This document shows positions 3,858-22,182 of a DNA stretch of 43,330 nt, piece by piece. Location: the IMG/VR virus record IMGVR_UViG_3300025764_000002, positions 1 through 43,330 of that record; one strand, given 5' to 3'. The notes under the pieces were generated by a model that did no database searches, was not told the DNA's origin, and saw nothing but the letters and a program-made list of their open reading frames with translations. Numbering within the stretch: the stretch's first letter is position 1; each line of letters opens with the position of its first letter. The translations under genes were made by a program, and so were the position numbers. This stretch comes from a virus.

Positions 3858-4610
3858 ATGATACTAGCCGTCGCAAATCAGAAGGGCGGGGTAGGGAAGA
3901 CGACGATTGCCTTCTCCCTCGCAAAGATGTCCGCTGCTGAGCGGGAAACGCTTGCCATTGACCTTGACCCGCAAGGAAACCTCACGTCCTGCTTCACGGA
4001 ATCTTTACCGGATTCCGCCAACGTGAAACTCCTGTGGGATAAGGATAAGGACGGGAACCCCGTTGACGGTGAACTCACGCCCGTTCCTCTTGCTAAGAAC
4101 TTTAGCCTCGTAGGGGCGGACATCTCCTTATCGTTCTGGGAGACCGGTGGAGGGGCCGCCGCGTATTTCAAGTTGAGCGGCTGGCTTAAGCGCCGGAAAG
4201 AGGAAGACTCATGGACGATTATTGACTGTCCACCCAACCTCGGTATTTTCAGCATCAACGCCTTCATCGCCGCGGACTATGTGCTGATTCCCGTGGACGC
4301 TTCCAAGTTCTGTATCCAGGGGCTTGACGCACTGTTCCGCTCCATGAAAGAGGTCAATCGGGAACTGCGTCAGGACGGTGGGCTGAAAGTGGCGGGCCTC
4401 CTGCTCTCTGCGGTCAACCCCCGAATGCTGTTCGTTCAGGAGATGCGGCGCCAGTTGCGGGGAATGTACCCCAAGCACGTCATGGAAATCAGTATTCCCG
4501 ATTCCATCCGCGTCAGAGAGGCGTTAGCCGAAGGGGAGCTGGTGCCACGCGGGGCGCCGTTTGTCTCCTTTCAGGCAATGTACCACGAACTAGAAGGGAG
4601 GATATCATGA
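3858..4610 (+). CDS. parA: ParA-family partition ATPase
   Basis: A 250-residue Walker-type ATPase that would segregate the circular genome to daughter cells using the nucleoid as a matrix. Visible motifs are the deviant Walker A KGGVGKTT (residues 9-16) at the very N-terminus, the AIDLDPQGN switch (33-41) and Walker B IIDCPP (121-126) followed by a helical region. With no N-terminal DNA-binding extension it resembles the short, type Ib ParA class, which works with small ribbon-helix-helix partners. It has a strong ribosome site (AAGGAGGT), its own promoter and operator, and a 4-nt overlap with the partner gene. It is on the opposite strand from the surrounding leftward genes, so the cassette is a self-contained unit. 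Confidence 0.93.
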   Translation: MILAVANQKGGVGKTTIAFSLAKMSAAERETLAIDLDPQGNLTSCFTESLPDSANVKLLWDKDKDGNPVDGELTPVPLAKNFSLVGADISLSFWETGGGAAAYFKLSGWLKRRKEEDSWTIIDCPPNLGIFSINAFIAADYVLIPVDASKFCIQGLDALFRSMKEVNRELRQDGGLKVAGLLLSAVNPRMLFVQEMRRQLRGMYPKHVMEISIPDSIRVREALAEGELVPRGAPFVSFQAMYHELEGRIS

Positions 4611-16053: not shown

Positions 16054-16262
16054 TTTTTCATCGACCCCGCGGCCTGAACAGAGTTTGCCCGTTCCAATTC
16101 CCCTATATAGTCTTTGGTGTTTTCTTCCCAATCCTTAATAACCGTCCGCATTGTTCCAGCCTCAGTCTCACATGCCTGCAGTCGTTCATTGAGATTGAGT
16201 TCTCTCTTATTAAATAAATCATTTATTTCATCTAACACGTCGTCCATTGTTCCTATCATCAC
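16050..16262 (-). CDS. Hypothetical coiled-coil protein (70 aa)
   Basis: An acidic helix-rich protein (VLDEINDLFNKRELNLNERL, then TVIKDWEENTKDYIGELERA) likely to form a coiled coil. It is coupled by ATGA overlaps to both neighbours. Unknown function. Confidence 0.65.
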   Translation of the reverse strand: MMIGTMDDVLDEINDLFNKRELNLNERLQACETEAGTMRTVIKDWEENTKDYIGELERANSVQAAGSMKK

Positions 16263-16987
16263 TTCTCCTTTGCCGCCATCGCGGCTTCTACCTCTTGCTT
16301 AAATAAGAAGTTGTAGGCGACGGCATTTATCTTTGCCATACCTTGTCCGGTGTGTTGATTGTGATAAACGCTGCGGTGTAGGGGTTTTGGCATATAGATA
16401 ACCCGATCGTTATCTACGTGATGCCCCTCACAGCCCTCGAACCAAGAGTTTAGTGGGGTAAACCCTAGCAAACGACGCTTAGCACTTGCCTTGTGCGCCC
16501 ATATTTGCGCCCCACCCTTCCAGTTTGGATTTAGTGAGCCAACAAATAAACCCATGCGTGCGGCGGACATATGCGCTACCGTTTCAGGAGTTCTTTTAAG
16601 ACCAAGGTTTGCAGCGGACAGCCTTGCCCTCGTCTCGGGAGACTTGATGCGCCCCCTACTTGCTGCACTTATCTTTATCTTTGTTTCTTCCGATGGGTGA
16701 AAACCAAGCGAGTTAGTATTTCCCATTCTTGCAGCCGACATCTTAGCCCTAGTAGCGACAGAGGGGTAATATCCAAGTGTGTACTGGTTCCCCATTAACG
16801 CAGCGGATTTCTTCGCCCGCGTTTCTGACGAGTCCTTATGTCCCAGATGTGCGGCAGAGTCTTTTGCCCGCGCCGTAAGTGACATGGTGTGTCCCATTGT
16901 CGCCGCAGATATCCGCGCCCGTGTTACGAGAGATTTTGGTCTTCCTATCAGCGCGGCGGATATTTTCGCTTTCTGTTCATCCGTCAT
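16259..16987 (-). CDS. NUMOD3-repeat HNH endonuclease-like protein, copy B
   Basis: 242 residues; eight NUMOD3-type repeats (about 16-22 residues each) precede an HNH-like C-terminal domain with EGHHVDNDRVIYMP and LHRSVYH. The last 35 residues are nearly the same as in the gene at 13440-14030, showing recent duplication with a change in repeat number, which would alter the length of DNA contacted. It is coupled to both neighbours by ATGA. No intron or intein host gene is adjacent. Confidence 0.85.
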   Translation of the reverse strand: MTDEQKAKISAALIGRPKSLVTRARISAATMGHTMSLTARAKDSAAHLGHKDSSETRAKKSAALMGNQYTLGYYPSVATRAKMSAARMGNTNSLGFHPSEETKIKISAASRGRIKSPETRARLSAANLGLKRTPETVAHMSAARMGLFVGSLNPNWKGGAQIWAHKASAKRRLLGFTPLNSWFEGCEGHHVDNDRVIYMPKPLHRSVYHNQHTGQGMAKINAVAYNFLFKQEVEAAMAAKEK

Positions 16988-19089: not shown

Positions 19090-19295
19090 GGGGTCGCTTT
19101 CTTGGCTTCGGCTTCCAGCGCCTTGCTGTCTGCCCTCATTGCTGCGGCCCATGTTTGCATAGGGTCTTCTGCAAGCGCTTCACGGTGTGCGGCCTCAATC
19201 TCTGCGGCTTCGGCTGCGTCAATGGTCGCCTGTTCGGTGGCGCTGATAGTCATGGCGTCTGCGGTGTGGAACTGTTTGGCTTTGGTGTTTTGCAT
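19086..19295 (-). CDS. Hypothetical Ala-rich protein (69 aa)
   Basis: The start at ATG 19295 is preferred over 19343 because a GGGAGA ribosome site and a CCCC-GGGG hairpin precede it, as in other genes of this block. The protein is an alanine- and glutamate-rich helix (TIDAAEAAEIEAAHREALAE). Unknown function. Confidence 0.65.
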   Translation of the reverse strand: MQNTKAKQFHTADAMTISATEQATIDAAEAAEIEAAHREALAEDPMQTWAAAMRADSKALEAEAKKATP

Positions 19296-19309
19296 GGTGT
19301 TTCTCCCTT

Positions 19310-19321
19310 CCCCATTCGGGG
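19310..19321 (-). promoter_or_regulatory. Leader hairpin before the Shine-Dalgarno site (gene at 19295)
   Basis: On the minus strand CCCC-GAAT-GGGG directly precedes AAGGGAGAAACACC and the ATG. It has the same layout as the hairpins at 21022, 21333, 21709 and 21962. Confidence 0.55.
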
Positions 19322-19349
19322 CAATTCTAAGCGGTACGTTCACGGTGGC

Positions 19350-19568
19350 CTATTGCTTGAAGCCGCCGAGCTGAAACTCGACAATACCAAACCAGCAGCG
19401 TAAGCGCCTTGTTTCGTGCGTGTAGCGCTTAGCGTAAAGACTAAGGGCCGCATATTCGTTGCCTTGAATAGAAAACGGCAACTTAGGGAGTGGAACGGGA
19501 CAGAAGGTGTGAAACTGCTCGATGTAGCCTCTTGATTCTTTGTTCAGAAACTCGGCCAGTGTATTCAT
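19350..19568 (-). CDS. Hypothetical protein (72 aa)
   Basis: ATG 19568 follows AAGGAGAACGAC, the same ribosome site wording as at 21947. The protein has basic and aromatic segments (YAKRYTHETRRLRCWFGIVE). It begins MNTLA like the protein at 21111-21320, but the rest differs. A GC-rich stem (CCGG repeats, about 19583-19599) sits upstream of the ribosome site. Unknown function. Confidence 0.65.
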   Translation of the reverse strand: MNTLAEFLNKESRGYIEQFHTFCPVPLPKLPFSIQGNEYAALSLYAKRYTHETRRLRCWFGIVEFQLGGFKQ

Positions 19569-19633
19569 GTCGTTCTCCTTGTCCGGCTCTCGGCTCCGGC
19601 TGCCGTCTGTAGGGTAGGCTGTTGGCCTGCTCG

Positions 19634-19654
19634 CGGGAACCTTCGCGGCTCCCG
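19634..19654 (-). other. Strong intercistronic hairpin
   Basis: CGGGAACC (19634-19641) pairs with GGCTCCCG (19647-19654; one G-T), with a 5-nt loop. It lies between the genes at 19672-19941 and 19350-19568. No T-run on the minus strand; probably an RNA-stability or processing element. Confidence 0.5.
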
Positions 19655-19671
19655 TGAATCGGTCAAGCGGC

Positions 19672-19941
19672 TTAGAGTTTTTTCGGTATTAGTTCATAGG
19701 CACCAGGCAGGAGGCGGTAAGTCGTTGCAAGGGTTGTGCTTTTTCCGTCTGCATCGCGTGGGTGGCTTGGCATTGCATAACACAAGCCCGCACTGGCCTC
19801 CCTAATCACTGCTTCGCAAATGGCTTTTTCAATGGTGGGCAGGTCGCTTGGAATCTTTCGGTTGAAGTGTTGCTGCATGGCTCCATCATGAGAGGCCAAT
19901 AAAACAAGGTCGTGGACACTCATTTTTCCGTAGTCGCTCAT
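19672..19941 (-). CDS. Hypothetical protein (89 aa)
   Basis: Begins MSDYGKMSVHDLVLLA and contains IEKAICEAVIREASAGLCYA, similar in order to the protein at 5186-5446 (MNYGEMSADELLNEI, then LRKAVIREASVG). These look like two diverged copies of one early gene. It ends before a strong hairpin. Unknown function. Confidence 0.7.
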   Translation of the reverse strand: MSDYGKMSVHDLVLLASHDGAMQQHFNRKIPSDLPTIEKAICEAVIREASAGLCYAMPSHPRDADGKSTTLATTYRLLPGAYELIPKKL

Positions 19942-20135
19942 GGCGTTGCCTCCTTAATCGGGCAATTTGCCATCTGCTTCTCCCAGCACTCAAACTCTAT
20001 ACAGGGCTCGCGTGGACTGATACATTCGCCCTTATCTTCTTCTCTTTGCAGGACGCAACCGTCGCTTTCTCTGTCCCTAAGATGGCAATACAAGCAATGG
20101 TCTGGTTTCTTGTCCAGCGTTATTTGATATGTCAT
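19938..20135 (-). CDS. Small Cys-rich protein (65 aa)
   Basis: The start is taken at ATG 20135 after AGGGA; a longer reading to 20300 would overlap the membrane protein gene. Seven cysteines (14, 17, 27, 38, 45, 50, 58) in 65 residues, with CLYC and CIEFEC, suggest one or two bound metals. It ends KEATP from the embedded ribosome site of the next gene. Unknown function. Confidence 0.65.
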   Translation of the reverse strand: MTYQITLDKKPDHCLYCHLRDRESDGCVLQREEDKGECISPREPCIEFECWEKQMANCPIKEATP

Positions 20136-20139
20136 GTCC

Positions 20140-20400
20140 CTACACCATCGAGTCGGGGGTCTGTTTGGCATATCCTGCGTTTTCAATGGAGCAACCCTCT
20201 GAAGTGACGGGCCCCTCATGATTGGAGATGGTTTTACTGGGAACAATTCCGCTGTAAGGAAATATTCCTCCGCGCTTGTTTTCTGCTCTTTGTTTGTCAA
20301 GTTTCGTGGTCAGTCTTACGCTGCGGTAGTAATCTGCGGCGGTGAAACCAGCAATTATAGAGAGTGCAATACCGGTGACTGCTTGCCAGAAGTTAAACAT
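20140..20400 (-). CDS. Small membrane protein (86 aa)
   Basis: ATG 20400 follows GGGAGG and a small CCG-CGG hairpin (20410-20419). An N-terminal membrane segment (FWQAVTGIALSIIAGFTAAD) is followed by a basic, hydrophilic C-terminal part (SVRLTTKLDKQRAENKRGG). Unknown function; a Rz-like spanin layout is possible, but the position in the early region argues against lysis. Confidence 0.65.
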   Translation of the reverse strand: MFNFWQAVTGIALSIIAGFTAADYYRSVRLTTKLDKQRAENKRGGIFPYSGIVPSKTISNHEGPVTSEGCSIENAGYAKQTPDSMV

Positions 20401-20435
20401 TTGAACCTCCCGTGTACGGTGCCCGCTATGGGGTC

Positions 20436-20735
20436 TTATCCGTTTACTACCGTCAATGGCTTGAACTTGCTCGGCTCGCTGCTCTTGTAGAACTTGCTCG
20501 GATCGTCGGATGGGTCATCATCCTCAAACCATGTCTGGTACGCTTTCGGGTCGCGCTTCTCTAACTCTTCGAGCAGAAAGTCCCGCACCTGCGCAACGGC
20601 TAGGAAGTCGTCATCGGTCTTCGCCTCTTCCATCTTGACGGTGGACAGGTTCCACTCAATCACAAGATCGGTGGTGTTTAAGGTGTGGATGAGCGCGCGC
20701 ATTCCTGCCTTGAGTGTTGCCACGTTGTTTCTCAT
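20436..20735 (-). CDS. Hypothetical protein (99 aa)
   Basis: A helical, acidic protein (LKAGMRALIHTLNTTDLVIE, AVAQVRDFLLEELEKRDPKA) with a Ser/Asp/Lys tail (DDDPSDDPSKFYKSSEPSKF). It is coupled to the upstream gene by ATGA. Unknown function. Confidence 0.7.
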   Translation of the reverse strand: MRNNVATLKAGMRALIHTLNTTDLVIEWNLSTVKMEEAKTDDDFLAVAQVRDFLLEELEKRDPKAYQTWFEDDDPSDDPSKFYKSSEPSKFKPLTVVNG

Positions 20736-21001
20736 GATGATATCTCTTTGCCAAATGTTTCTTCAAGTTGGAGCAGGTAGGCGCCAATGGCCGTCCAGTT
20801 GCACCAGAAAAACAGGCGGGAGCTGTCGGTATGGTTTACCTTGTCGGAGACTTGTAGAACCTTGTGCGCCATTTCGCCAACGGCGGCGGGTGAGCGTTCT
20901 CCTTGGTATTGCTCCATAACGTCAAGAAAACCGTTGCTGATGCGCGAGACAAGGCCAAGAATGGTGGCCGTTGCGTTGATGTCTTCGGCGGTTTTGTTCA
21001 T
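20732..21001 (-). CDS. Hypothetical protein (89 aa)
   Basis: A helical protein (TAEDINATATILGLVSRISN, AAVGEMAHKVLQVSDKVNHT, LFFWCNWTAIGAYLLQLEET). ATG 21001 follows AAGGAG and the hairpin at 21022-21033. Unknown function. Confidence 0.7.
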   Translation of the reverse strand: MNKTAEDINATATILGLVSRISNGFLDVMEQYQGERSPAAVGEMAHKVLQVSDKVNHTDSSRLFFWCNWTAIGAYLLQLEETFGKEISS

Positions 21002-21021
21002 GTCAAACTCCTTATTCCCCT

Positions 21022-21033
21022 ACCCTTTCGGGT
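21022..21033 (-). promoter_or_regulatory. Leader hairpin before the Shine-Dalgarno site (gene at 21001)
   Basis: On the minus strand ACCC-GAAA-GGGT, a GNRA-type loop on a 4-bp stem, lies just upstream of AAGGAG. It belongs to the leader hairpin family of this operon. Confidence 0.6.
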
Positions 21034-21046
21034 TGCGGGGTTGTTA

Positions 21047-21112
21047 GACTGCGACACGGCGCGGTGTGTTACTGTTGGCCGTGTTTCGCCGTTTCCGGCT
21101 CGTCAGGCAGTC
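21047..21112 (-). other. Structured intercistronic spacer A
   Basis: GACTGC (21047-21052) pairs with GCAGTC (21107-21112), and inside it ACGGCG (21056-21061) pairs with CGCCGT (21087-21092). It has the same nested plan as spacers B and C. The 3' arm touches the stop codon of the gene at 21111-21320. Confidence 0.4.
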
Positions 21113-21320
21113 AGTCGTTCCAGTCAATGTGCTCGTATTTGGGGCACCAATTCCTTTTGGTCTTGCGGGGTGCTCCGTTGATTGGGTCAAGAACGCAACG
21201 CTCAGAAATGCTGCATTGCTCGCAGTTCAAGCAATTCTCGCCACGTTCGAGGGCGTCGGCCTTGCTGTCCATTCGTTGCGTTGCTTCGATGTTTGAGAGT
21301 GTGGCGGCTAGTGTATTCAT
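21111..21320 (-). CDS. Small Cys-rich protein (69 aa)
   Basis: Cys 30, 33, 36, 42 and 59 (NCLNCEQCSISERC, NWCPKY) suggest a zinc site in the middle of the protein. ATG 21320 follows AAGGAG and the hairpin 21333-21344. Unknown function. Confidence 0.65.
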   Translation of the reverse strand: MNTLAATLSNIEATQRMDSKADALERGENCLNCEQCSISERCVLDPINGAPRKTKRNWCPKYEHIDWND

Positions 21321-21332
21321 TAGTTCTCCTTT

Positions 21333-21344
21333 GCGCTTCTGCGC
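21333..21344 (-). promoter_or_regulatory. Leader hairpin before the Shine-Dalgarno site (gene at 21320)
   Basis: GCGC-AGAA-GCGC on the minus strand, directly before AAAGGAGAAC. Stem bases differ from the CCC-GGG members, yet the pairing is kept, which supports a real structure. Confidence 0.55.
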
Positions 21345-21355
21345 TCGTTCTGTGT

Positions 21356-21412
21356 GATACGTTCACACAAGGCGCGGGAGTGAAAGTACCCCTGCCCTTG
21401 TGTCAGCATATC
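21356..21412 (-). other. Structured intercistronic spacer B
   Basis: GATACGTTC (21356-21364) starts the element; ACACAAGG (21365-21372) pairs perfectly with CCTTGTGT (21396-21403), then CAG, and TATC (21409-21412) closes on GATA. It shares GATACGTTCAC and GTCAG wording with spacer C. Confidence 0.45.
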
Positions 21413-21692
21413 AACCCCTCAAGTCGTCAGGGTCTGGCTCCTCCCTCCATGCCCGTACTTCCTCTTCGGCATTTAGTACCCCCCGCTCTTCGTCCTCTGC
21501 GAGAGTTTCAACGTGTGCGGCGTTGTACCCTTCTTCCTTGAGTGCCAATTTTTCAGCATAAGAGAGCAGATCGTCAATGTTGATGAGCAAAAGCCCCAGC
21601 GTGTCGCTGGTCAGGTTCGCGTCGATGCGGTCGATGGCAAACAGTGCAGCCCTTAGTCCTTCCTTTGGTGTCGTCAACGGTGTTTTTGTCAT
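21411..21692 (-). CDS. Hypothetical protein (93 aa)
   Basis: An acidic helical protein (EGLRAALFAIDRIDANLTSD, LLLINIDDLLSYAEKLALKE, AEEEVRAWREEPDPDDLRG). ATG 21692 follows AAGGAGAG and the hairpin 21709-21718. Unknown function; the strong negative charge could suit a DNA mimic, but this is speculation. Confidence 0.7.
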   Translation of the reverse strand: MTKTPLTTPKEGLRAALFAIDRIDANLTSDTLGLLLINIDDLLSYAEKLALKEEGYNAAHVETLAEDEERGVLNAEEEVRAWREEPDPDDLRG

Positions 21693-21708
21693 GTTGTCTC
21701 TCCTTTTT

Positions 21709-21718
21709 CCCTCTTGGG
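21709..21718 (-). promoter_or_regulatory. Leader hairpin before the Shine-Dalgarno site (gene at 21692)
   Basis: CCC-AAGA-GGG on the minus strand, directly upstream of AAAAAGGAGAGAC. A short-stem member of the leader hairpin family. Confidence 0.5.
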
Positions 21719-21737
21719 GTTGTTCTAGGTGATAAGG

Positions 21738-21947
21738 TTACATCTGGTTCCAGTCGCGGCGCTGTGTATCACTGATATAAGTTCCGTACCACTCCTCAAC
21801 TCCCTGCGCCATGACTCTAACGCAGTCAATGTGTGGCTTGCGTTTCTGCTTGCGTAGGAACGCTTTTGTTTCAGAAATTCCGGGAAGCTGTGCGATTGTG
21901 AGCCATTGGTCGGTCAGTTCATTGTGTAGTTGTACTCTTGTCTCCAT
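21738..21947 (-). CDS. Hypothetical protein (69 aa), first early gene
   Basis: First gene after early promoter copy 1. The protein (ELTDQWLTIAQLPGISETKA, FLRKQKRKPHIDCVRVMAQG) is basic in the middle and resembles small phage proteins without known role. ATG 21947 follows AAAGGAGAAACGAC and the CCC-GGG hairpin. As the first product made, it might act on the host. Confidence 0.7.
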   Translation of the reverse strand: METRVQLHNELTDQWLTIAQLPGISETKAFLRKQKRKPHIDCVRVMAQGVEEWYGTYISDTQRRDWNQM

Positions 21948-21961
21948 GTCGTTTCTCCTTT

Positions 21962-21971
21962 CCCTTTCGGG
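21962..21971 (-). promoter_or_regulatory. Leader hairpin before the Shine-Dalgarno site (gene at 21947)
   Basis: CCC-GAAA-GGG on the minus strand, followed by AAAGGAGAAACGACATG. The stem and GAAA loop match the one at 21022-21033. Confidence 0.6.
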
Positions 21972-21980
21972 TCCCTCTGC

Positions 21981-22024
21981 GATACGTTCACGGGGGCTGT
22001 GTGTACGGCTCCCGTCAGTGTATC
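21981..22024 (-). other. Structured spacer C in the early leader
   Basis: GATAC (21981-21985) pairs with GTATC (22020-22024), and ACGGGGGC (21990-21997) with GCTCCCGT (22008-22015, one mismatch or G-T). It lies in the roughly 200-nt leader between promoter copy 1 and the first early gene. Confidence 0.5.
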
Positions 22025-22052
22025 ACTTAGTGGTGTGGGGTCGGCTTAACCT

Positions 22053-22154: not shown

Positions 22155-22182
22155 ATCATACGGGTATCTGTGTTCCTGTCAA
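22155..22182 (-). promoter_or_regulatory. Leftward early promoter, copy 1
   Basis: On the minus strand a consensus TTGACA (22182-22177), a 16-bp spacer (GGAACACAG...CCG) and TATGAT (22160-22155). The spacer shares the GGAACACA and terminal CG wording with copies 2 and 3. It starts the whole leftward early operon. Confidence 0.88.

What the first reader, a model, noticed from the sequence alone, without database searches (positions are those of the whole stretch)
19310..21971. Recurrent stem-loop placed directly before the Shine-Dalgarno site in the early operon
At least five genes (starts at 21947, 21692, 21320, 21001, 19295) have a 3-4 bp stem with a 4-nt loop immediately upstream of AAAGGAGA-type sites. 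Stem sequences vary (CCC/GGG, GCGC/GCGC, CCCC/GGGG) while pairing is kept, and loops are GAAA, GAAT, AAGA or AGAA. A weaker version occurs before 20400 (CCG-CGG). Genes coupled by ATGA overlap lack it. It looks like a translational leader module, perhaps an RNA-stability or ribosome-standby element, or a binding site for a phage protein.
Basis: seen in the sequence. Interest (0 to 1): 0.72.

Follow-up and report, generated by a model that had tools for sequence, protein, structure and literature searches.

The report
Phage leader cassettes with hammerhead ribozyme

Summary
The stems are real at the five named genes and exceed chance: 7 of 11 tested early leaders with a Shine-Dalgarno (SD) site have one, against 0 of 10 late genes and about 10% in shuffles. 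The weaker sixth case (20400) is not supported. Each stem is only the 3' end of a leader cassette of about 90-120 nt. Leaders of 21947, 21692, 21320 and 19295 are copies of one element ("type A"): an imperfect hairpin of 17 pairs, an AGA-containing linker, the short stem, then the SD. The leader of 21001 is a type I hammerhead ribozyme, predicted to cut 52 nt upstream of the start codon and leave a nested hairpin near the new 5' end. Relatives keep the leaders, with compensatory changes, although the genes behind them have been replaced. A distant relative (terminase 63%) has a canonical hammerhead in its early operon, and unrelated phages place hammerheads 22-38 nt before start codons. Best explanation: gene-by-gene processing of early mRNA, the short stem capping the new 5' end before the SD. 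Hammerheads near phage genes are known. Type A has no Rfam match and was found only in this genus; its cleavage or binding partner is unproven.

The parts
21945..22032 (-). Type A leader cassette of gene 21947 (P1, CUG/GAA internal loop, P2, linker, short stem, SD, start codon)
   Evidence: CM R1 89 bits (training sequence)
21962..21971 (-). short stem CCC-GAAA-GGG before AAAGGAG
   Evidence: sequence, enrichment
21690..21778 (-). Type A leader cassette of gene 21692, diverged; 5' half lies inside the preceding gene
   Evidence: CM R1 E 2e-5 to 9e-5, not in the training set
21709..21718 (-). short stem CCC-AAGA-GGG
   Evidence: (shuffle P 0.016)
21318..21420 (-). Type A leader cassette of gene 21320; the preceding gene's stop codon lies in P1
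   Evidence: CM R1 75 bits (training sequence)
21333..21344 (-). short stem GCGC-AGAA-GCGC
21047..21112 (-). Type I hammerhead ribozyme: stem I GACTGC/GCAGTC, CTGACGA, stem II GCCG-GAAA-CGGC, GAA, stem III ACACGGC/GCCGTGT, C17; predicted cleavage between 21053 and 21052
   Evidence: descriptor with controls; CM from unrelated phage hammerheads E 8e-5; fold
21017..21040 (-). nested hairpin CCCC-GCA-ACCC-GAAA-GGGT-A-GGGG, the first structure of the cleaved mRNA, 3 nt before AAGGAG
   Evidence: the relatives' version (AGCC-GAGA-GGCT inside CCCC/GGGG) has a compensatory change
19569..19671 (-). Type C leader of gene 19568, starts right after the previous stop codon; 75 bp 97% identical to relatives while the genes differ
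19293..19413 (-). Type A leader cassette of gene 19295, diverged; 5' half inside the preceding gene
   Evidence: CM R1 E 6e-5 to 3e-4, not in the training set
19310..19321 (-). short stem CCCC-GAAT-GGGG
22155..22182 (-). sigma-70-like promoter TTGACA-16-TATGAT upstream of the early operon
   Evidence: consensus scan, 11 of 12

Best explanation
The early operon is read from one strong promoter as a long mRNA. Several of its junctions that are not translationally coupled carry exchangeable RNA leader cassettes, laid roughly from the previous gene's stop codon to the next start codon. Each has an upstream processing element, then a short hairpin, then the SD. In the 21001 cassette the processing element is a type I hammerhead ribozyme. 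By homology it should cut itself between 21053 and 21052 and leave a 5'-OH mRNA with 52 nt upstream of the start codon, whose first structure is the nested hairpin (shown: anatomy, conservation, covariation; inferred: cleavage). In the type A cassettes the same position is taken by an imperfect hairpin of 17 pairs with an invariant CUG/GAA internal loop. I take it to be a functional substitute, most simply a duplex cut by host RNase III as in the T7 early mRNA (own knowledge), or else a site for a phage protein (inferred). After processing, the short stem would act as a 5' cap that slows end-dependent decay and keeps the SD open (inferred).
For: Hammerhead in the 21001 leader: all core nucleotides and three stems present; the descriptor gives no hit in a reversed-sequence control of 2.8 million strand-bases or in 40 shuffled windows. 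A covariance model from hammerheads of unrelated phages finds it at E 8e-5 and that of relative L066 at 2e-10, far ahead of any non-hammerhead match in 130 kb. L066 has the ribozyme in its early operon, with three double changes in stem III. Placement: 22 of 37 listed hammerhead rows (some near-identical copies) lie 22-46 nt before an SD-start pair, six each in the contigs L091 and L101 of another phage group. Type A: consensus hairpin with five P2 pairs showing double changes; only 1 of 119 strand permutations pairs as well for P2, and 23 of 5039 for the short stem. Leaders B and C are 91-97% identical in relatives although the early genes of the window have no detectable homologue there. One good operon promoter, and terminator-like sites no more frequent than chance.
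Against: No cleavage or transcript data. The hammerhead core in relatives L006, L007, L009 and L010 is CCGACGA (U4C), which may weaken or abolish cleavage, so the fold there may be kept for another reason or be decaying. The MFE of the whole 118-nt leader pairs part of the ribozyme with the SD region instead, although the ribozyme alone folds as drawn. Rfam gives only a sub-threshold hammerhead match. Type A has no demonstrated link to cleavage, its P1 helix shows conservation rather than covariation, and it rests on few independent sequences from one genus.
Confidence: 0.6

Rival explanations
1. The cassettes act mainly on translation: the structured leader with its short stem holds a ribosome standby site open and insulates each SD from upstream coding RNA. 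The hammerhead fold is only a structural spacer.
For: Position directly before the SD; stems absent at coupled starts and at late genes; the U4C core in relatives would keep the fold without cleavage.
Against: An intact catalytic core in the window, in L066 and in many unrelated phages is not expected of a mere spacer.
Confidence: 0.2
2. Type A (and perhaps the short stem) is the binding site of a phage RNA-binding protein, for example an autoregulator or an N/boxB-like antitermination system acting on the early operon.
For: Invariant CUG/GAA internal loop and conserved UGAACGUAYC strand across copies; A-rich, partly GNRA loops and GCCC/GCGC stems recall lambdoid boxB hairpins (own knowledge).
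Against: The loops are not one sequence class; no boxA-like site lies at the leaders, and there are fewer in the window than chance gives (9 against 14); a copy before each of several genes is unusual for nut sites.
Confidence: 0.15
3. The repeated leaders are kept as recombination joints that let early genes be swapped, with no RNA-level role.
For: Genes are replaced while leaders are kept, and L006 and L007 carry the same gene behind different type A leaders. The first codons ATGAATACACTRGCC are shared too.
Against: Type A stems change sequence while keeping pairing; a joint needs identity, not complementarity.
Confidence: 0.05

Closest known systems
Type I hammerhead ribozymes in phages and prophages (Perreault et al. 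2011, PMC3088659)
   Same: Core, three stems, intergenic place in phage operons; mRNA processing into operon- or gene-length units was proposed there. In haloviruses HF1/HF2 a hammerhead variant lies 13 nt upstream of an early helicase start codon, and a 5' end was taken there as a sign of activity in vivo.
   Different: Here the ribozyme shares its kind of place with non-hammerhead cassettes in the same operon and is followed by a second hairpin before the SD.
Start-associated and extended start-associated sequences of cluster K mycobacteriophages (PMC3203893)
   Same: Repeated element with inverted repeats directly before the starts of a subset of non-structural genes, conserved between phages, function unknown.
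   Different: There the repeat sequence itself is conserved; here stems covary, one leader type is a ribozyme, and the sequences are unrelated.
RNase III sites between phage T7 early genes (own knowledge, not tested)
   Same: Imperfect duplex of about two turns between early genes, followed by a clean leader and SD.
   Different: No RNase III data here; type A has a conserved internal loop and linker of its own and a second short stem.

Membership tests
Hammerhead ribozyme, type I | Core CUGANGA, GAA, and A15.1-U16.1 followed by H17 | tested here: met
   CTGACGA, GAA, A/T pair and C17 in the window, CTGATGA in L066; relatives L006/L007/L009/L010 have U4C
Hammerhead ribozyme, type I | Three stems, open end in stem I, pairing kept by compensatory change | tested here: met
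   fold; double changes in stems I, II and III over four sequences
Hammerhead ribozyme, type I | Score with a family model | tested here: inconclusive
   Rfam Hammerhead_3 18.3 bits, below gathering 48.5; no gathering hit; own model from phage hammerheads E 8e-5
Hammerhead ribozyme, type I | Self-cleavage at the predicted site | not testable with these tools
   needs in vitro transcription
Lambdoid boxA/boxB (nut) antitermination site | boxA next to a boxB hairpin | tested here: not met
   no boxA-like site at the leaders
RNase III processing site | Imperfect duplex of about 20 bp | tested here: met
   type A P1+P2: 17 consensus pairs with C-A and G-G mismatches
RNase III processing site | Cleavage by RNase III | not testable with these tools
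   no transcript data; host unknown

The most novel reading that the evidence does not exclude
Type A (and perhaps type C) is a new class of self-cleaving ribozyme, or a dedicated phage RNA-processing element, standing in for the hammerhead at the same kind of site. PMC10085705 argues that places holding one self-cleaving class can hold others.
Probability: 0.12. Interest if true: 0.88.

Novelty: new variant of a known kind. Interest (0 to 1): 0.6.

Why it matters
What hammerhead ribozymes do in prokaryotes and their phages is called an open question (PMC6155905). Here one belongs to a set of exchangeable leaders that end in hairpin and SD, and unrelated phages place hammerheads one by one 22-38 nt before start codons. 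That points to mRNA processing at start sites and makes it directly testable by mapping 5'-OH ends. Type A is a candidate for a new processing element.

Tried and rejected
Type A as a general phage motif: two scans of 2.9 million viral contigs gave, outside this genus, only hits without the structure, and model R1 found none in L066 or in the other hammerhead phages tried. Type C elsewhere: only the same genus. Host by terminase in bacterial genomes: no relative. Annotated phages: no DNA match. boxA/boxB: not met. The P1 covariation printed was an error of register; the corrected table has 46 of 56 cells paired and no firm covariation. In alignment A4 two of the short-stem rows are shifted by one base, so its short-stem pair counts were not used. 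Type A as a reduced hammerhead (CUGA...GAA without stem III): noticed, not supported. PHROGs and Pfam give no function for the early genes.

Full report
What is there. The window is a 43,330-base virus record with a leftward early operon behind a sigma-70-like promoter at 22182-22155. With a fixed rule, 7 of about 11 early leaders with an SD have such a stem, 0 of 10 late ones do, and shuffles give about 10%. The 20400 case does not stand out.

The stems are ends of longer leaders. Relatives were found through the terminase (L005 identical; L006, L007, L009, L010 at 87-91%; L066 at 63%). Reading their early operons showed that leaders, not genes, are shared: 75 bp before gene 19568 are 97% identical and 70 bp before 21001 are 91% identical, while none of the window's early proteins from 21947 to 19295 has a detectable homologue in the relatives.

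Type B is a hammerhead. The leader of 21001 reads GACTGC-CTGACGA-GCCGGAAACGGC-GAA-ACACGGC...GCCGTGT-C-GCAGTC, a complete type I hammerhead, and folds so on its own. The descriptor gives nothing in reversed sequence or in shuffled windows. A covariance model made only from hammerheads of unrelated phages hits it (E 8e-5) and hits L066 (E 2e-10). L066 carries its hammerhead in its early operon with compensatory changes. In four closer relatives the core has C at position 4. Rfam scores the window copy below threshold. The predicted cut leaves 52 nt before the start codon: stem I's 3' strand, then the nested CCCC-ACCC-GAAA-GGGT-GGGG hairpin, then the SD. Relatives have AGCC-GAGA-GGCT inside the same outer stem.

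Type A. Leaders of 21947 and 21320, of the first gene of L006, L009 and L010, and of two genes of L007 align to an imperfect hairpin of 17 pairs with an invariant CUG/GAA internal loop, a UGAACGUAYC strand, an AGA linker and the short stem. P2 has five and the short stem two pairs with double changes. P1 is conserved without firm covariation (the P1 table was in the wrong register). It has no Rfam match and was not found outside the genus.

Hammerheads before start codons elsewhere. A pattern scan of viral contigs and the descriptor list 37 hammerhead rows, 22 of them 22-46 nt before an SD-start pair. In L091 and its relative L101 several genes each have their own. Clusters of hammerheads around prophage genes, and processing as their role, were proposed in PMC3088659; the role remains open (PMC6155905).

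Interpretation. The economical reading is a set of exchangeable RNA leaders that process the early mRNA at gene junctions and leave a short stem before each SD. The hammerhead's identity is well supported; its activity here is inferred. That type A is a processing site, and that the short stem caps the 5' end, are inferences; standby and protein-binding roles remain possible.

Noticed in passing
21320, 19568 and L006/L007 early genes: Non-homologous early proteins share their first codons (ATGAATACACTRGCC, MNTLA), so the conserved leader runs into the coding sequence.
   Followed up: partly
L091 and L101, reverse strand (starts listed): Several genes in a row each carry a type I hammerhead 26-38 nt before the start codon; L091 has no match among annotated phages.
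   Followed up: partly
L006 8378-8321 (-), and same leader in L007, L009, L010: Hammerhead core has U4C (CCGACGA), so activity is doubtful; an extra hairpin GGTCTCG-AAA-CGAGACC lies behind the ribozyme.
   Followed up: partly
L066 about 7790-7697 (-): A second early leader shares CTATCTGGTGGCGACCTA..ACGCGGA with the hammerhead leader of the same contig but has another upstream structure.
   Followed up: no
window 22090-22040 (-): The 5' UTR of the early operon has a hairpin (AGACTGCCGCTATCGCGGTCT) whose counterpart in L006 keeps pairing with changed bases.
   Followed up: no
window 16259-16987 (-): ORF with repeated ETRAKxSAAxxG-like units, of the kind seen in homing endonucleases with NUMOD repeats (from memory, not tested).
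   Followed up: no
window 3858-4610 (+): ParA-like partition protein (phrog_164, E 1e-40): possibly a plasmid-like prophage.
   Followed up: no
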